Assembly (NCBI RefSeq): GCF_025629245.1
Contig: NZ_JANZXN010000029.1
Location: 1 to 64,000 of the forward strand
Source: Natronobiforma cellulositropha
Lineage (GTDB): Archaea > Halobacteriota > Halobacteria > Halobacteriales > Natrialbaceae
DNA: 64,000 nucleotides
Direction: 5' to 3'
Program-made: the position numbers and the translations under genes
The notes under the pieces: model-generated
What the model was told of the DNA's origin: nothing
The model's input: the letters and a program-made list of their open reading frames with translations, nothing else
Databases searched by the model: none
Shown: positions 33,626 through 39,777 of the stretch, one piece after another
Layout of the letters: every line of letters starts with the position of its first letter
Numbering within the stretch: the stretch's first letter is position 1

Positions 33626-33646
33626 CCTATCCGCGAGGTTTTCGTG
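33626..33646 (+). promoter_or_regulatory. Promoter-proximal box of CHAT cassette 1
   Basis: cctatccgcgaggttttcgtg, 44 nt before the start of the HalOD1 gene. The first 20 bases match cctatccgcgaggtattcgt at 37328-37347 in 19 positions, at almost the same distance (43 nt) from the second cassette's first ATG. A shared regulatory site or promoter element is the simplest explanation. Confidence 0.6.
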
Positions 33647-33669
33647 TGTCCTGAGCATAGCGACCACAG

Positions 33670-34911
33670 ATGATCGACGATGACGACGGGTCCTCGACGC
33701 CGTCGAGTTATCCGCGAGCCGACACTTCAAACGCCGTCTCGGCCGTACCTCGTCTCTCGAGCGTCACGCTCGTCCAGCAGGTCGCCGAGGAGGCGGGGTG
33801 TTCGCCCCTCGAGTTACCGCCGTTGAACGAGACGGTCGACGCCGATGCGCTCGACGCGCTGGTCGAGCACGCGCCAGCGGACGCCAGATGGCCGGAGATA
33901 TCCTTCGCGTACGCAGGCGTCCGGGTGCGTGCCACGCCCGATGGTACGGTGACCGTCACCCACGAACCACCACCGAACGACGAGCGCTGGCCGCACGTCA
34001 CTCCGGTCGACGCCGAGGAGGGGGCAGACGTCGCGATGGCGGTCGTCTTCGAACTCGCCGCCCGGTCGGGGACCGATCCGGCGCTCGTCCGATCGACACT
34101 CGAGGGAATCGTCGACCTCGAGGCGCTCGCGTCGTTGAACCGTGACCGGGCGAACGGCATCGCTCGCACCGGCGCGACCGTTCGGTTCTCGGCGTTCGGT
34201 CAGGACGTGGCCGTCTCGCCGACGGAGACGATTTCGATGGGGTCGACGCTGGGACGTCTCAAACAGCGCGGAGGAAACGTCCTCGTCGTCGGTGCCGTCC
34301 CCGACGCGCTGGTCGACGCCGTCAGTTCGACGCTGCTCGGTGCGTCCGGAGCAGGCCACCGACACCTCTTCGCACTCCTGGACCGCGACCTCGAGACCGT
34401 CTCGGAGCGACTGGGACCACCGACGCTCGGCTCACCGAGTCCCACGCCGAGCGGACCGACACACGTCGTCAACCACGCCACCACCTCGCGTTCGGCTACC
34501 GAGCCACAGGTGAGCGCCGGAACGCCGCCGCCGTCGGTGACGGACGTTTCCGGCGACGTCGACGCGTTCGCGAGCGCCGTCGCGGACGCCCTCTCCGACC
34601 TCGGTGGCGACGACGGCGGGGACTCCGCGTCGGTACGCGTCTGTCTCGACTCCCTGCGCCCGGTCCTCGAGAGTCGCGACGAGGCGGGCGTCCGCGCGTT
34701 CCTCGAGCCGATCTACGCCTCGGTTCGTGAAACCGCGGCGCTCGCTCACTACGTGCTTCCGGTCGAGCGCGACACGCCGGCGGTCGCCGCGCTCGAGGAC
34801 GCCTTCGACGCGACGGTCGAACTGCGTATCAACGCCACCGTCCCGGAACAGCGCTGGCACCTGCGAGACGGCGCGTACACGACGCCGTGGTTCGCGGTCG
34901 ACGACCGATGA
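33670..34911 (+). CDS. HalOD1-domain protein with KaiC/RecA-like C-terminal part
   Basis: A 413-residue protein upstream of the first CHAT gene. Residues about 33-100 fit the HalOD1 output domain (QQVAEEAGCSPLELPPL, then an FAYAGVRVRATPDGTVTV hairpin). Later a Rossmann/RecA-like stretch appears (NVLVVGAVPDALVDAVSSTL) without a Walker A lysine, and a C-terminal domain (AHYVLPVERDTPAVAALEDA). This looks like the haloarchaeal DUF7504 class of degenerate RecA-like proteins. Its stop overlaps the CHAT gene start (ATGA at 34908), so the two are translated together. It is probably a sensor or regulator for the CHAT protein, by context. Confidence 0.7.
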   Translation: MIDDDDGSSTPSSYPRADTSNAVSAVPRLSSVTLVQQVAEEAGCSPLELPPLNETVDADALDALVEHAPADARWPEISFAYAGVRVRATPDGTVTVTHEPPPNDERWPHVTPVDAEEGADVAMAVVFELAARSGTDPALVRSTLEGIVDLEALASLNRDRANGIARTGATVRFSAFGQDVAVSPTETISMGSTLGRLKQRGGNVLVVGAVPDALVDAVSSTLLGASGAGHRHLFALLDRDLETVSERLGPPTLGSPSPTPSGPTHVVNHATTSRSATEPQVSAGTPPPSVTDVSGDVDAFASAVADALSDLGGDDGGDSASVRVCLDSLRPVLESRDEAGVRAFLEPIYASVRETAALAHYVLPVERDTPAVAALEDAFDATVELRINATVPEQRWHLRDGAYTTPWFAVDDR

Positions 34912-37043
34912 GCCGTTCGACACCCGCTCCGGGTGAGCCATCGATGCAGTCGGTGACGCCGACGTTTACGCCCGACGACGACCGCCCCGGCCTGACCGTC
35001 GTCGACCCCATCGAGAACAAACAGTTTCCACTCGAGACCGCCGCCCCGGTCGACCTCGAGACGGCGCCAGCCGAGGGGTTCTCCTTCCCGGTCGACGGCG
35101 CGACGAGCTTCGTCACCGACCGGCTGGCGCTGCCCTACGTCGTCCCGGTCTACGCCCGCGACGCCGAGGGTGACCTGTGTTTCGAAGGCGAACACCACGC
35201 CAACGAGACGCTTCCAGCGGGCGAGTACCTCCTCGAGCTGATGGCACCGGTCAGACTCTACGTCTCCGTCGACGCCGAGGTGACGGTCCGCTCGAGCGAC
35301 GACCGGCTGACCATCGAGTTCGACCGGCCGACGCGCGTCCGGCTTGGGGCACGCTCACAGCACGACGTGCCCGCGGGGACCGTCCGGACGACGGCCGAGC
35401 CAGCGGCGCTCGCCGCGGCCATCTCGACGTTCGGCTCCGCGCTGAAGACGACCGCACCCGACCGAGCGTTCCCGACGTTGCGCGGCCACCCACCGCGACT
35501 CGTCCTCGACGACACCCTCGAGATTCCGGCCGAGTTCGATCCGCCCGAGACGGGCATCAGGCTCGTCGTCCCGCCCGACACCGGTGCCCTCTACGCGGCG
35601 GCTCCGCTCGCGTACTACCTGGGCGCGACGGTCTCCGTCGGCGACGAGCCACGCCTCGAGACCGACCGCGGCTTCACCGATCCGCTCGGACAGGGTGAGC
35701 ACGACCTCGAACGCTCACTCGAGAGGGTGCTCCGACACTGTTTCTTCCTCGACTGTGTCGTCAGAACCGAGGGCCTGTACCGGACCGCGCTCTACGAACG
35801 GCGCGTCGTCGAAGAGCGCGTCGACCTCGACTTCGCCGAACTGTACGCGATGGACCCGGCGGCGCGACTCGAGGCGTACCGATCGGTGCCGGTCGAGACC
35901 GTCGAGGACCTCCACCCGGCCTGGTCGCTCGTCACCTACGTGACGCCCGAGTCGAGACACGCCCGCTCGCTCCCGTTTCTCGCGAACGACCTCTCGATCG
36001 TCAGAGCCGCGCCCACCGACTCACAGTCACCTGCTCAGTCGACCCCCTCGACGCGCGCGCAGACGCCCTTCTCGGCCGACGTCGACGCGTTCGTCCGTGC
36101 CGTAAGCGACGACGCGAGCCGAGAGCGACGCCTCGAGACCGGCGCGTTCGTCTCGCCGCCCGACGCGGACGCGTTCGAGCGCGCCTGGCTCGGCGAGGGC
36201 GTTCCGGTCGGGGCGAACAAACTCCTCGACGGGGCGTTCGAGAACGCCCTCGCGGAGTCGCCCGAACCGGAGACCATCGAGATCACGGTCGCCTGTACCG
36301 ACGACGCGATGGCCGAGGAACTCGAGGGCAGTCTCTACGGCGGCCGCGACGAACTCCCCTTCGAGGTCAGCGTCCACCGGCGGCCGTCGGTCGCCGAACT
36401 CGAGTCGTTGCTCGCCGCCGAGGTCGACTTCTTCCACTACGTGGGTCACGTCGAAGACGGCGCGTTCGTCTGTGACGACGGGACGCTGTCGCCAGCGACG
36501 CTCGAGTCGGTCGGCGTCGACGCCTTCCTGCTCAACGGCTGTCGGTCCTACGACCTCGGCGTCGACCTGATCGAGGCGGGCGGCGTCGGCGGCATCGTCA
36601 CGCTCAGCGAGGTCGGCAACCCCGACGCCGTCGCCATCGGACGGCTGATCGCCCGGCTACTGAACGGCGGTTTCACACTTCGGACCGCGCTCTCTGTGGC
36701 ACAGCGCACCCGGCTGGTTGGCGCACAGTACGTCGTCGTCGGCGACGGCAGCGCGGCGGTCACCCAGTCGGGCGGCGGCATCGCGAACCGGTGTCACGTC
36801 ACTCCCGTCGGCGACCGCTACCGGGTGACGATTCACGTCTACCACGCACAGGCCGGCATGGGCGGTCTCTACATCCCCTACGTCGACGGCGTCGACCACC
36901 ACTTCGTCGCCGGCGGCGACCTCCCGCCACTCGAGCTCTCGCGTGACGAACTGCGTCGCTTCCTGGCGCTCGAGGAGATTCCCGTCGAGGTCGACGGCGA
37001 GTTCTACTGGTCGAGCGACCCGCTGCTCGAGCGGGCGCTGTGA
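34908..37043 (+). CDS. CHAT-type (caspase-like) putative protease, copy 1
   Basis: A 711-residue protein. Residues about 1-370 form an unrecognised, mainly beta/mixed domain starting near PDDDRPGLTVVDP. A low-complexity linker (about 368-390) follows. The C-terminal part (about 440-650) has the CHAT pattern: FFHYVGHVEDGAFVC with H510 and H514, FLLNGCRSYDLGVDLIEAGG with C545, then GGIVTLSEVGNPDAVAIGRL and a helix FTLRTALSVAQRTR. H514/C545 is the predicted dyad. ATG 34908 overlaps the HalOD1 stop. Substrate unknown; the 44-residue TM peptide gene 31 nt downstream is a candidate. Confidence 0.75.
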   Translation: MSRSTPAPGEPSMQSVTPTFTPDDDRPGLTVVDPIENKQFPLETAAPVDLETAPAEGFSFPVDGATSFVTDRLALPYVVPVYARDAEGDLCFEGEHHANETLPAGEYLLELMAPVRLYVSVDAEVTVRSSDDRLTIEFDRPTRVRLGARSQHDVPAGTVRTTAEPAALAAAISTFGSALKTTAPDRAFPTLRGHPPRLVLDDTLEIPAEFDPPETGIRLVVPPDTGALYAAAPLAYYLGATVSVGDEPRLETDRGFTDPLGQGEHDLERSLERVLRHCFFLDCVVRTEGLYRTALYERRVVEERVDLDFAELYAMDPAARLEAYRSVPVETVEDLHPAWSLVTYVTPESRHARSLPFLANDLSIVRAAPTDSQSPAQSTPSTRAQTPFSADVDAFVRAVSDDASRERRLETGAFVSPPDADAFERAWLGEGVPVGANKLLDGAFENALAESPEPETIEITVACTDDAMAEELEGSLYGGRDELPFEVSVHRRPSVAELESLLAAEVDFFHYVGHVEDGAFVCDDGTLSPATLESVGVDAFLLNGCRSYDLGVDLIEAGGVGGIVTLSEVGNPDAVAIGRLIARLLNGGFTLRTALSVAQRTRLVGAQYVVVGDGSAAVTQSGGGIANRCHVTPVGDRYRVTIHVYHAQAGMGGLYIPYVDGVDHHFVAGGDLPPLELSRDELRRFLALEEIPVEVDGEFYWSSDPLLERAL

Positions 37044-37074
37044 CCGCACAAAAGTGGGGCGTCTGACGGCCGAC

Positions 37075-37209
37075 TCAGGTCGTCGCACCGCCGTTGCCGG
37101 CGGCGACCGTGCCGACCTGTGAGACCACCAGCGCGGTCGTGAGCAGAGCACCCGTGAGCCGTGGGTGCTCGAGCAGGAACGTTCGGATCGGTGTCTTCGT
37201 ATCGGACAT
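37075..37209 (-). CDS. 44-residue single-TM peptide, copy 1 (GNGG end)
   Basis: ATG 37207-37209. Starts MSDTKTPIRTFLLEHPRLTG, continues ALLTTALVVSQVGTVAAGNG and ends GATT. One TM helix, then a small-residue C-terminus after a possible AA/GN junction. TATA (ttatat, about 37237-37242) lies about 30 nt upstream. It is the same length as the peptide at 39643-39777 and shares R9, L12, H15-P16-R17, A21, L27, S30-Q31 and G38-N39-G40-G41. It faces the CHAT gene tail to tail. I regard it as real because both its position and sequence are repeated. Resembles short haloarchaeal families with HPR...SQ...; function unknown. Confidence 0.75.
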   Translation of the reverse strand: MSDTKTPIRTFLLEHPRLTGALLTTALVVSQVGTVAAGNGGATT

Positions 37210-37327
37210 CGCGACCTACCAACGTCGTGAACGATCTTATATCTAGCGCCGCGTGTCTGTCACGTTTGCCGACCGGTTCTCGGCTGCTCGCCGGCTCTTC
37301 GTTACTTACGTGACTGTCTCGACCTGG

Positions 37328-37348
37328 CCTATCCGCGAGGTATTCGTA
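37328..37348 (+). promoter_or_regulatory. Promoter-proximal box of CHAT cassette 2
   Basis: cctatccgcgaggtattcgta, the counterpart of the box at 33626-33646 with one mismatch in the first 20 bases; 43 nt before the ATG at 37371. Its preservation when most of the upstream gene is gone supports a regulatory role. Confidence 0.6.
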
Positions 37349-37370
37349 GCGCTCGCGCCTATGGCTGGAA

Positions 37371-37502
37371 ATGATCGACGAGACCGCACTGTTCGACCCG
37401 ACGAGCGACGGACACGCCGCTCGCACAACCAGACACACCTCGCCCCCGGTGTCCGGGCGTGACACCGACACCACTGGTCTCCCGGCGGGTGATCCCGGGT
37501 GA
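37371..37502 (+). CDS. 43-residue leader peptide, remnant of HalOD1 gene start
   Basis: ATG 37371 gives MIDETALFDPTSDGHAARTT and ends LPAGDPG. Its TGA (37500-37502) overlaps the GTG of CHAT copy 2 (37499-37501), as the full HalOD1 gene overlaps CHAT copy 1. Like that gene it begins with MID plus an acidic residue, and it sits behind the same 20-bp box. No HalOD1 or RecA-like domain remains. It may be a degraded remnant kept for translational coupling, or a functional leader. Not a domain-bearing gene. Confidence 0.55.
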   Translation: MIDETALFDPTSDGHAARTTRHTSPPVSGRDTDTTGLPAGDPG

Positions 37503-39634
37503 CGCCGGCCGACCGACGCGGCTCCGTCGACGCCGATTCACCGCCGCTCGAGTACCAGCGACCGGTCGCGCCGACGTTTCGCCCCGACGACGACCGCCCC
37601 GGTCTCACCGTCGTCGACCCCGTGAGAAACAAGCGCTATCCGCTGCAGACGTCCGACCCCGTGACCCTCCACGAGAGTGACCCCGACGCGTTCTGCGTTC
37701 CCGTCGACGTGGCGACGGCGTTTACGGCCGCGTCGCTGTTGTTGCCGTACGTCGTCCCGACGGTCGTCCGCGACCGCCACGGCCGGATGCTCACCGAGGT
37801 CGAACACAACGCCTACGAACCGCTCGGCGACGGCGAGTACCACCTCGAGTTGATGACGCCGATCAGGCTCTGCCTGCGTGTCGAGGGGCCGCTCACCATC
37901 GCCTCCTCGGACCGGCGGCTGGCGTTCGCCTTCGATGGCCCGACGCGCCTCCACCTCGGCGCACGCTCACCGCACGAGCGCCCGGCGGCCACCGTCACGA
38001 CCACGACCGAACCAGCGGCCCTCGCGGCGGCCGTCTCGACGTTCGGCTCCGCGCTGAAGACGACGAGCCCCGAGCGCTCGCTGCCGACGCTGCGCGGCCA
38101 CCCGCCCCGCCTGGAACTCGGCGACGCCCTCGAGATTCCAGCCACCGTCGAACCACCGGCGACGGGGGTCAGGCTCGTCGTCCCCGACGACCGGGCGGCC
38201 GTCTACGCGGCGAGTTCGCTCGCGTACTACCTGGGCGCGACCGTCACCGTCGGCGACGAGCCACGCCTCGAGACCGACCGTGGGTTCACCCACCCGCTCG
38301 GGAGGGGTGGACCGGCGTTCGAACGCTCGCTCGAGGAAGTCCTCGAGCAGCTGTTTTTCGTGGACTGTCTCGTCCGGACGGAGGGGCTGTACCGGATCGA
38401 CCTCGACGAGCGCCACGCCGTCGAAGAGCGTCTCGACGCCGACTTCACCGAACTGTACCACATGGACCTCTCTGCACGCCTCGAAGCGTATCTCTCGCTC
38501 CCGTTCGAGGCGGTCGCCGACGTCTTCCCACCCTGGCAGCTGGTGACGCACGTCACCGACGACCCCGAGAACGCCCGTCTGTTACCGTTTCTCGCGAACG
38601 ACCTCTCGATTATCCGGAGCGGAGACACCGACACCCCCTCGAGCGCTGGCCCACCCGCGCTCGGTCTCGAGGAATTCGTCCGGTCTGCCGCACCGTCGGA
38701 CAGCGCCGGTCTCGGTCTCGACGCGTTCGTCTCGCCGCCCGAAACCGACGCCATCGAACAGGCCTGGGCGGGACCTGGCGTCCCAGTCGGGGCGAACAAA
38801 CTCCTCCCGGCGGGCTTCGAACACGGACTCACCGCGGCGGCCTCGAGCGACCGCATCGAGATCACGATCGTCTGTAACGACCCGCGGATGCTCGCGGAGG
38901 TCGACGGGGTGGCCTACGGCGACCGGGAGGAACTGCCCTTCGACGTCACGGTTCACCGGGAGGTGACGGTCGAGGAGTTACGCGGGATTTTCGCGGCCGA
39001 TACCGACTTCGTACACTACGTCGGCCACGTCGAGGACGGTGCGTTCGTCTGCCGGGACGGAACGCTTCCAGCGGAGTCGCTGACCGACGTGGGCGTCGAC
39101 TTCTTCCTGCTCAACGGCTGTCTCTCCTACGAGATCGGCGTCGAGTTGATCGAGGCGGGCAGCGTCGGCGGCATCGTCACGGTGAGCGAGGTCGGCAACC
39201 CGGACGCGGTGGCCGTCGGCCGCCTCGTCGCCCGCCTCCTCAACACGGGCTTTACGCTCCGCTCTGCGGTCGACGTCGCCCGGTCGTACCGGCTGGTCGG
39301 CGCGCAGTACGTCGTCGTCGGCGACGGTGGCGCGGCGGTCACCCAGTCGGGCGGCGGCGTCCCGAACGTCTGTCACGTCGAGTCCGCCGACACCGACGGG
39401 GACCGGCCCTACCGCGTCCGTCTCCAGCTCTACCACTGTTCGGACACCGGCATGGGTTCGGCGTACATCCCCTACATCGACGGCATCGACCGCTACTTCC
39501 TCGTCGGCGGCGAACTCCCGACGCTCTCACTGTCCGGGTCGGCGCTCACTCGCTTCCTCCGACTCGAGGGTATCCCGGTCGAGTTCGACGGCGAGTGGTA
39601 CTGGTCGACTGACGAGGTATTCGAAGAACTGTAG
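37499..39634 (+). CDS. CHAT-type (caspase-like) putative protease, copy 2
   Basis: A 711-residue paralogue of 34908-37043, similar over the whole length, with long shared blocks such as DDDRPGLTVVDP, TFGSALKTT, LPFLANDLSI and VPVGANKLL. Predicted dyad H510 (HYVGHVEDGAFVC) and C541 (FFLLNGCLSYEIG) is intact. The GTG start overlaps the leader ORF's stop. The N-terminus is seven residues longer before the conserved DDDRPG. Expected to be an active protease if copy 1 is. Differences cluster in the linker (about 370-400), where duplicated proteases can diverge in activation. Confidence 0.75.
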   Translation: MTPADRRGSVDADSPPLEYQRPVAPTFRPDDDRPGLTVVDPVRNKRYPLQTSDPVTLHESDPDAFCVPVDVATAFTAASLLLPYVVPTVVRDRHGRMLTEVEHNAYEPLGDGEYHLELMTPIRLCLRVEGPLTIASSDRRLAFAFDGPTRLHLGARSPHERPAATVTTTTEPAALAAAVSTFGSALKTTSPERSLPTLRGHPPRLELGDALEIPATVEPPATGVRLVVPDDRAAVYAASSLAYYLGATVTVGDEPRLETDRGFTHPLGRGGPAFERSLEEVLEQLFFVDCLVRTEGLYRIDLDERHAVEERLDADFTELYHMDLSARLEAYLSLPFEAVADVFPPWQLVTHVTDDPENARLLPFLANDLSIIRSGDTDTPSSAGPPALGLEEFVRSAAPSDSAGLGLDAFVSPPETDAIEQAWAGPGVPVGANKLLPAGFEHGLTAAASSDRIEITIVCNDPRMLAEVDGVAYGDREELPFDVTVHREVTVEELRGIFAADTDFVHYVGHVEDGAFVCRDGTLPAESLTDVGVDFFLLNGCLSYEIGVELIEAGSVGGIVTVSEVGNPDAVAVGRLVARLLNTGFTLRSAVDVARSYRLVGAQYVVVGDGGAAVTQSGGGVPNVCHVESADTDGDRPYRVRLQLYHCSDTGMGSAYIPYIDGIDRYFLVGGELPTLSLSGSALTRFLRLEGIPVEFDGEWYWSTDEVFEEL

Positions 39635-39642
39635 CTCCTCTT

Positions 39643-39777
39643 TCAGCTGATCACTCCGCCGTTTCCGGTCGGGTACACGATCGCCTGCGAGAGGATCAGT
39701 GTGGCACCGAAGGCGGCGCTCAGTACTCGTGGGTGACTCTGGAGAACCGACCGAACGTACGCTGCTTGCTTCGACAT
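39643..39777 (-). CDS. 44-residue single-TM peptide, copy 2 (GNGG end)
   Basis: ATG 39775-39777. Begins MSKQAAYVRSVLQSHPRVLS, TM helix SAAFGATLILSQAIVYP, end TGNGGVIS. Length, HPR motif, SQ pair and GNGG positions are identical to the peptide at 37075-37209. Stop codon eight nt after the CHAT copy 2 stop on the other strand. A TATA-like tattac (about 39801-39806) lies upstream. An in-frame ATG further upstream would add 34 poorly supported residues. Confidence 0.75.
   Translation of the reverse strand: MSKQAAYVRSVLQSHPRVLSAAFGATLILSQAIVYPTGNGGVIS

What the first reader, a model, noticed from the sequence alone, without database searches (positions are those of the whole stretch)
33626..39777. 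Duplicated CHAT-protease / small membrane peptide cassette
Two cassettes lie in tandem, each with the same order: 20-bp box, coupled upstream ORF, 711-residue CHAT-like protein, and a convergent 44-residue TM peptide. In bacteria CHAT proteases are often paired with a dedicated substrate or effector such as gasdermin-like pore proteins or type III-E CRISPR targets. A paired TM peptide preserved beside each copy suggests a protease-substrate or protease-effector module in archaea. This is my best candidate for an undescribed system; the function is inference.
Basis: partly seen in the sequence, partly recalled or inferred. Interest (0 to 1): 0.88.

Follow-up and report, generated by a model that had tools for sequence, protein, structure and literature searches.

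The report
Haloarchaeal caspase-fold protease with matched mini-peptide
Most sampled salt-loving archaea carry a caspase-fold protease gene that ends head-on against a tiny gene for a 38-46-residue signal-peptide-like peptide, and the variable ends of the two proteins change together between species, as in a self-specific signal and its receptor.

Summary
The observation largely holds. Two tandem cassettes encode 711-aa CHAT (caspase-fold) proteins, each facing a convergent 44-aa peptide and preceded by the same 20-bp box. The upstream ORFs differ: 413 aa (HalOD1x2 plus a KaiC-like DUF7504 domain) in copy 1, only 43 codons in copy 2. Pfam's CHAT model misses the proteins, but the predicted structure matches separase, SAVED-CHAT, gingipain and Craspase, and the His/Cys dyad is intact in 125 of 127 relatives. 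The peptide is Pfam DUF7503. Relatives occur in 129 of 146 haloarchaeal genomes. 110 of 125 distinct CHAT genes have the peptide convergently at their 3' end, and none of 17 CHAT-less genomes has it.

New here: the peptide has a conserved signal-peptide-like core plus a variable 7-9-residue tail, often ending in Gly-Pro. The CHAT C-terminal domain is hypervariable and its divergence tracks the tail (44 independent pairs, partial rho 0.72), not the core. Alleles cross species boundaries. Peptide-less CHATs show no hypervariability.

Best reading: a polymorphic recognition pair, with the tail as ligand and the CHAT C-terminal domain as its sensor. Direct protease-substrate action is possible but not shown. 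Function, topology and cleavage are untested.

The parts
33626..33645 (+). 20-bp box, copy 1 (CCTATCCGCGAGGTTTTCGT), ~25 nt before the start codon: cassette promoter element
   Evidence: Only two perfect copies in the whole genome; core found at the same spacing upstream of the orthologous gene in L101. Promoter role is inference.
33670..34911 (+). 413-aa HalOD1-HalOD1-DUF7504 protein (DUF7504 = KaiC/RecA-like fold; no Walker A motif seen)
   Evidence: Pfam DUF7504 E 2.2e-37, HalOD1 E 1.7e-25; NCBIfam DdfA 78.4 bits, cut-off 70; AF2 pLDDT 87.6; KaiC Foldseek E 2.7e-6, Z 16.1
34908..37043 (+). CHAT-fold protein copy 1, 711 aa, start ATG overlaps the upstream stop (ATGA); dyad H514/C545
36783..37034 (+). 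CHAT copy 1 C-terminal domain (approx. residues 626-709), the domain that is hypervariable across the family
   Evidence: homologous to residues 622-705 of copy 2
37075..37209 (-). 44-aa peptide 1 (DUF7503), tail GNGGATT; 31 nt between the two stop codons
   Evidence: Pfam E 1e-11
37328..37347 (+). 20-bp box, copy 2 (CCTATCCGCGAGGTATTCGT)
37371..37502 (+). 43-codon ORF overlapping the CHAT2 start: probable remnant of the 5' end of the HalOD1-DUF7504 gene after cassette duplication
   Evidence: same box-to-ATG layout and ATGATCGACGA start as 33670; no Pfam match. Remnant status is inference.
37499..39634 (+). CHAT-fold protein copy 2, 711 aa; dyad H510/C541
   Evidence: AF2 pLDDT 82.6, pTM 0.83; separase/SAVED-CHAT/gingipain/Craspase matches
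38840..39346 (+). CHAT copy 2 catalytic domain (approx. residues 448-616)
   Evidence: VIA alignment ranges to SAVED-CHAT 448-616 and caspase/legumain 448-618
39362..39613 (+). CHAT copy 2 C-terminal domain (residues 622-705), co-varies with the peptide tail across the family
39643..39777 (-). 44-aa peptide 2 (DUF7503), tail GNGGVIS; 8 nt between the two stop codons
   Evidence: Pfam E 2.7e-6

Best explanation
A polymorphic recognition module of haloarchaea. The convergent gene makes a 38-46-aa precursor: a conserved core (YLxxHPRMxGxLFTxxLLLSQAGxxAA, read as a signal peptide or signal anchor with an AxA site) followed by a variable tail of mostly 7-9 residues, usually ending Gly-Pro. The tail is the ligand. 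The C-terminal domain of the neighbouring CHAT (caspase/separase-fold) protease is its cognate sensor. Binding, or lack of binding, of the matching tail gates the protease, whose output is probably relayed by the upstream HalOD1/KaiC-like protein where present. The convergent layout keeps the two specificity-determining 3' ends side by side, so matched alleles can be exchanged as one short DNA block. SHOWN here: CHAT fold, conserved dyad, near-universal convergent pairing, hypervariability of the C-terminal domain and of the tail, their co-divergence, allele exchange, and absence of hypervariability in peptide-less CHATs. INFERRED: physical binding, gating of the protease, export or topology of the peptide, and a social (pherotype or kin-recognition) role. 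My estimate is about 0.7 for a cognate recognition pair and about 0.45-0.5 for the tail gating CHAT.
For: CHAT fold: AF2 pLDDT 82.6, pTM 0.83; Foldseek separase E 2.7e-7, SAVED-CHAT E 9.9e-7; VIA Z gingipain R 18.9, SAVED-CHAT 17.9, separase 16.9, Craspase 13.9. Dyad intact in 125/127; the two exceptions have no peptide. Pairing: 110/125 distinct CHATs have the convergent peptide, 0 same-strand, commonest gaps being overlapping or abutting stops. DUF7503 in 122/146 genomes versus CHAT in 129/146, and in none of the 17 CHAT-less ones. Tail: 72 distinct among 76 GP-class tails, mostly 9 or 8 residues, core pN/pS 0.29 versus tail 0.63. Co-divergence: partial r tail~Cdom given body 0.67, core~Cdom 0.00 over 177 pairs; over 44 independent pairs 0.72 (p 0.0002) versus 0.16 (p 0.14). 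Silent-site divergence marks Cdom (0.60) plus tail (0.59) against body (~0.28) and core (0.25). Trees conflict: Haloferax body L167+L179 100%, Cdom L168+L179 93% (identical tails); Haloarcula body L024+L139 98%, Cdom L024+L136 89% (identical tails). Negative control: in pairs with body identity >=0.80 the Cdom/body identity ratio is 0.97 in peptide-less CHATs versus 0.71 in peptide-linked ones, p 0.0003 (the peptide-less pairs are not independent).
Against: Cdom and tail are adjacent in the DNA, so joint recombination alone can make them co-vary; the core, a few codons further, does not follow, which weakens but does not remove this objection. L167/L179 differ by 24% in Cdom but by one tail residue, so the match is not one-to-one. 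About 12% of CHATs lack a recognisable peptide. The window's own clade has tails without GP. The g2 genus with peptide shows only mild hypervariability. CHAT has no visible export signal, so an exported tail would have to be re-imported or meet CHAT at the membrane. No expression, binding or cleavage data exist here.
Confidence: 0.5

Rival explanations
1. Protease-substrate/effector module: activated CHAT cleaves its membrane peptide (for example at the conserved HPR/M site or at the tail), releasing or activating a membrane-damaging or signalling fragment, as in CHAT-gasdermin or Craspase-Csx30. The Cdom would be an exosite for the tail.
For: CHAT fold with conserved dyad; an obligate neighbour that never occurs without CHAT; almost invariant P-R/K-M motif before the hydrophobic segment.
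Against: The variable, co-diversifying part is the tail, not the HPR region; no sequence or fold similarity of the peptide to gasdermin or Csx30 was sought beyond Pfam; no cleavage data. A plain substrate would not be expected to be under diversifying allele exchange.
Confidence: 0.22
2. No functional recognition: the 3' ends co-vary only because recombination replaces a short DNA block that happens to span both gene ends, in a fast-evolving, weakly constrained domain.
For: The block is contiguous in DNA and silent sites are elevated too; sharp block edges in Haloferax.
Against: Block edges coincide with domain edges in many lineages; the peptide core just beyond the tail is not affected; orphan CHATs with the same C-terminal domain are not hypervariable; tail length and terminal GP stay fixed, so the tail is constrained. 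Variation is mostly at third positions with all base types, and the two Haloferax genomes tested hold no second copy of the domain, which argues against a retroelement or silent-cassette mutator.
Confidence: 0.14
3. Toxin-antitoxin-like pair: the small hydrophobic peptide is a membrane toxin and CHAT (or antisense transcription from the overlapping 3' ends) keeps it in check.
For: The peptide never occurs without CHAT while CHAT occurs without the peptide; stops overlap or abut, so transcripts may be mutually antisense.
Against: Near-universal presence (129/146) and single orthologs across Haloferax do not look like a mobile addiction module; the strict tail length and GP end are not a usual feature of small membrane toxins.
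Confidence: 0.08
4. Membrane anchor or accessory subunit: the peptide merely tethers CHAT to the membrane, without specificity.
For: Conserved hydrophobic core with nearly invariant G and Q and an invariant P.
Against: Does not explain the co-diversification of the tail with the C-terminal domain.
Confidence: 0.06

Closest known systems
CHAT/caspase-fold proteases paired with a partner: SAVED-CHAT, Craspase TPR-CHAT (Csx29)-Csx30, bacterial CHAT-gasdermin, separase
   Same: Same protease fold with His/Cys dyad and a dedicated neighbour gene.
   Different: No TPR, SAVED, gRAMP or gasdermin part was found; partner is a 38-46-aa peptide in convergent orientation; the recognition ends are hypervariable; Pfam CHAT PF12770 does not detect it.
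Rap-Phr (RRNPP) peptide signalling of Bacillus (own knowledge)
   Same: Precursor of ~40 aa with signal-peptide-like core, AxA-type site and a short variable C-terminal ligand, encoded next to its presumed receptor.
   Different: The presumed receptor is a CHAT protease, not a TPR protein; convergent rather than same-strand genes; archaeal; export and re-import not shown.
agr and ComQXPA pherotype loci (e.g. PMC4408185; details from own knowledge)
   Same: Hypervariable DNA block spanning the ligand and the facing part of its partner, conserved flanks, allele exchange.
   Different: No AgrB/ComQ or histidine kinase adjoining; partner is a caspase-fold protein.
Fungal heterokaryon-incompatibility loci, including protease-gasdermin pairs (cf. 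PMC12881547, PMC11138114; details from own knowledge)
   Same: Polymorphic pair that includes a protease, with old alleles.
   Different: No cell-death phenotype known here; a link to haloarchaeal cell fusion is only a hypothesis.
DdfA (HVO_2176) of Haloferax volcanii (PMC10869688, PMC12240190)
   Same: A HalOD1-type domain: copy 1's upstream protein passes the NCBIfam DdfA cut-off.
   Different: HalOD1 is widespread in haloarchaeal signalling; the H. volcanii disk-forming signal is reported as a proteinase K-resistant small molecule, so it is not evidence for this peptide.

Membership tests
CHAT / clan CD cysteine protease | Caspase-type alpha/beta fold of the catalytic domain | tested here: met
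   Foldseek E 1e-6 to 1e-7 to separase and SAVED-CHAT; VIA Z 17-19 over 167-243 residues
CHAT / clan CD cysteine protease | Catalytic His (HxxGH) and Cys conserved | tested here: met
   Invariant in 32-sequence alignment; intact in 125 of 127
CHAT / clan CD cysteine protease | Sequence match to Pfam CHAT PF12770 over its cut-off | tested here: not met
   No match in the own genome nor by hmmscan; so it is a divergent CHAT-fold family that Pfam does not cover
CHAT / clan CD cysteine protease | Proteolytic activity | not testable with these tools
   needs biochemistry
Craspase (type III-E) / SAVED-CHAT | Recognition part (TPR or SAVED) or gRAMP partner | tested here: inconclusive
   None among Pfam matches of the cassette proteins or in the annotated neighbourhoods read; the N-terminal 440 residues of CHAT were not folded and searched alone
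DUF7503 (PF24335) | Profile match over cut-off | tested here: met
   44.7 and 27.3 bits, cut-off 27
DUF7504 (PF24336) / HalOD1 (PF18545) | Profile match over cut-off | tested here: met
   129.7 bits (cut-off 27) and 89.4 bits (cut-off 26.3), copy 1 only
RecA/KaiC ATPases | Fold | tested here: met
   KaiC Foldseek E 2.7e-6, Z 16.1
RecA/KaiC ATPases | Walker A motif | tested here: not met
   Alignment reads LVVGxVPxxxxxxAS where GxxxxGK[ST] is expected
Peptide pheromone locus (Rap-Phr / agr / ComQXPA type) | Short variable ligand at the end of an export-type precursor | tested here: met
   Sequence criteria only: small residues at -3 and -1 in ~98% of 122 peptides, tail variable, nearly fixed length; no dedicated signal-peptide predictor was available and export was not tested
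Peptide pheromone locus (Rap-Phr / agr / ComQXPA type) | Co-diversification of ligand and adjoining partner | tested here: met
   with negative control
Peptide pheromone locus (Rap-Phr / agr / ComQXPA type) | Secretion, sensing and transcriptional response | not testable with these tools
   needs experiments
Known anti-phage defence systems | Match to a PADLOC model | tested here: not met
   no match at E <= 1; no viral contig encodes a relative

The most novel reading that the evidence does not exclude
A first archaeal self/non-self recognition or pherotype locus: a caspase-fold protease that reads the variable tail of a matched micro-peptide from kin or from a fusion partner, with alleles kept diverse by balancing selection. 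It would be the archaeal counterpart of agr/ComX pherotypes or of fungal heterokaryon incompatibility, in organisms known to mate by cell fusion (own knowledge).
Probability: 0.3. Interest if true: 0.95.

Novelty: categorically new. Interest (0 to 1): 0.82.

Why it matters
The module is near-universal in one archaeal class yet named only as DUFs and 'hypothetical protein'. If the pair works as inferred, it is a peptide-recognition system in archaea, where no peptide-signal receptor turned up in the held papers, with a caspase-fold protein as the sensor. It also offers a concrete gene for an old puzzle: Haloferax volcanii shows very high caspase-like activity with no known gene (PMC3615174), and this CHAT-fold family, present in eight other Haloferax species examined, is a testable candidate. 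The matched hypervariable ends make the specificity question directly testable by swapping a 9-residue tail or an ~85-residue domain.

Tried and rejected
Pfam, NCBIfam and PADLOC scans of the CHAT protein found no usable match. PDB sequence search with the profile gave only chance matches. Viral contigs: none. A diversity-generating retroelement was considered and disfavoured: differences are of all base types, mostly at third positions. Silent cassettes were considered and disfavoured in Haloferax: one copy of the domain per genome tested. The H. volcanii quorum signal as this peptide was considered and not adopted: it is reported as proteinase K-resistant and small (PMC12240190). Linking peptide class (GP or not) to HalOD1: the two coincide mostly through one clade, so no independent evidence. 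Papers on DUF7503 or on CHAT in haloarchaea: none in the held library, which omits most subscription journals.
Full report
THE OBSERVATION. The window lies in a halophilic archaeon's genome (contig C22 of G000; order-level relatives are haloarchaea). Between 33626 and 39777 there are two tandem cassettes. Each has a 20-bp box (only two perfect copies in the genome), a 711-residue protein (61-62% identical to each other) and a convergent 44-residue peptide. The CHAT start of copy 1 is ATG 34908, overlapping the upstream stop. The upstream ORFs are not alike: copy 1 has a 413-aa protein with two HalOD1 domains and DUF7504, copy 2 a 43-codon ORF. Copy 2 looks like a duplicate that kept the box and start but lost most of that gene (inference).

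THE LARGE PROTEIN IS A CHAT-FOLD PROTEASE. Pfam CHAT does not detect it. In a 32-sequence alignment H506, G509, H510 and C541 are invariant. AlphaFold2 on that alignment gave pLDDT 82.6, pTM 0.83. Foldseek matches separase (E 2.7e-7), activated SAVED-CHAT (E 9.9e-7), gingipain and Craspase/Csx29. VIA Z-scores are 18.9 for gingipain R (rmsd 3.1, 242 residues), 17.9 for SAVED-CHAT (2.3, 167), 16.9 for separase (4.4, 237) and 13.9 for Craspase (3.2, 201). In RefSeq plasmid annotation nearly all relatives are 'hypothetical protein', one 'CHAT domain-containing', one 'caspase family'.

THE SMALL PEPTIDE IS DUF7503 AND FOLLOWS THE CHAT GENE. CHAT relatives occur in 129 of 146 sampled haloarchaeal genomes, with up to ten per genome. 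DUF7503 occurs in 122 of 146, and none of the 17 CHAT-less genomes has it. From the listed coordinates alone, 91 of 148 CHAT genes have a DUF7503 within 500 bp 3', all 91 convergent. With a more sensitive profile, 110 of 125 distinct full-length CHATs have it convergently and none on the same strand; the commonest gaps correspond to overlapping or abutting stop codons. Three of the CHATs that Pfam left unpaired carry divergent versions when read by eye. The window's genome has five CHAT paralogs and three DUF7503 genes, each of the latter beside a CHAT. Of 127 CHATs only two lack the dyad, and neither has a peptide. Distant homologs in one methanogen-size family of the phylum have no detectable peptide. 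In the tree the peptide-linked CHATs group apart from peptide-less haloarchaeal CHATs and the methanogen-type sequences.

THE UPSTREAM PARTNER. 73 of 127 CHATs have an adjacent DUF7504 gene, 68 of them co-directional upstream and 29 of these with HalOD1. The 413-aa protein was predicted at pLDDT 87.6; DUF7504 has the KaiC/RecA fold (Z 16.1, rmsd 3.0 over 179 residues) with no Walker A motif in the alignment. The HalOD1 part passes the NCBIfam DdfA cut-off. DdfA is a HalOD1 protein needed for disk formation and for the response to conditioned medium in H. volcanii (PMC10869688; PMC12240190). This is a lead only; that signal is reported as a proteinase K-resistant small molecule.

ANATOMY OF THE PEPTIDE. 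Among 122 distinct peptides P83 is invariant and R/K84, G87, F90, Q98, G100 and A104 nearly so (alignment columns). The core fits n-, h- and c-regions with small residues at -3 and -1; after it comes a tail whose length is almost fixed. The HPR-to-end distance is 32 in most GP-ending peptides and 30 in most others; 84 of 122 end in Gly-Pro. Of 76 GP tails 72 are distinct, and pN/pS is 0.29 in the core and 0.63 in the tail. The window's peptides belong to the class without GP.

CO-DIVERSIFICATION. A sliding partial correlation showed tail distance tracking the CHAT C-terminal domain best. That domain is the least conserved part of CHAT (mean pairwise identity 0.32 versus 0.47-0.55 elsewhere). 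In 177 close pairs, partial r of tail with Cdom given body is 0.67, and of core with Cdom 0.00. In 44 non-overlapping pairs the partial Spearman is 0.72 (p 0.0002), against 0.16 (p 0.14) for the core and 0.22 (p 0.076) for an N-terminal control. At silent sites, Cdom (0.60) and tail (0.59) form one high-divergence block against body (~0.28) and core (0.25). Haloferax gibbonsii and prahovense are 97-100% identical in most of the DNA around it except a ~240-bp stretch of Cdom at 53-77%. Body and Cdom trees conflict with good support, and identical tails follow the Cdom tree in both Haloferax and Haloarcula. As a negative control, CHATs without the peptide have Cdom as conserved as the body (identity ratio 0.97 versus 0.71, p 0.0003; the peptide-less pairs come from few genera and are not independent) and silent divergence that is not raised. 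One further genus with the peptide shows only mild hypervariability.

INTERPRETATION. Hypervariable, co-diverging ends with allele exchange across species are the signature of a specific recognition pair under balancing selection. The convergent layout places both variable ends in one short block, which may be why it is kept. I infer that the tail is the ligand and the CHAT C-terminal domain its sensor, gating the protease. Whether the tail is exported like a pheromone, displayed at the membrane or cleaved by CHAT is open. The main caution is physical linkage of the two ends in DNA; the unaffected peptide core and the peptide-less control argue against linkage alone.

NOVELTY. Parts are known folds, but no known system tested here has this composition, and no paper was found in the held library, which is not complete. 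I call the system categorically new with the proviso that its function is untested.

Noticed in passing
G000:C11:1652-3577 (L043, L077): A fifth CHAT paralog of the window's genome has lost the catalytic His/Cys and has no peptide gene: a pseudo-enzyme or decaying copy.
   Followed up: partly
L159, L161, L162, L165, L167, L168, L173, L179 (Haloferax species): Haloferax species carry the cassette; H. volcanii has orphan caspase-like activity with no gene (PMC3615174). This family is a candidate; the H. volcanii CHAT gene itself was not read, only that DUF7503 and DUF7504 are found in its genome (control lines).
   Followed up: partly
G056:C1:486534-486796; L074 (G089:C352:5147-5428): Two DUF7503 genes in direct tandem, identical in score in G056: a duplicated ligand gene beside one CHAT.
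   Followed up: no
L127 / L010 / L086 (Natronomonas sp. LN261): Exception: the peptide lies 1.4 kb downstream of CHAT on the same strand instead of convergent and adjacent.
   Followed up: no
L222 and L202: Divergent versions: L222 has a long tail (AWDSFVTTHGEGITNTGP), L202 a very divergent core (HPWAIGVIFSFGVYLSE...), both still ending in GP.
   Followed up: no
L196-L199 (G171, G180, G162, G153): Distant CHAT homologs in one non-haloarchaeal family of the same phylum, without a detectable peptide; one (L196) lacks the dyad.
   Followed up: partly
L014, L016, L020, L021, L028: In one genus the adjacent DUF7504 gene is divergent to CHAT rather than co-directional.
   Followed up: no
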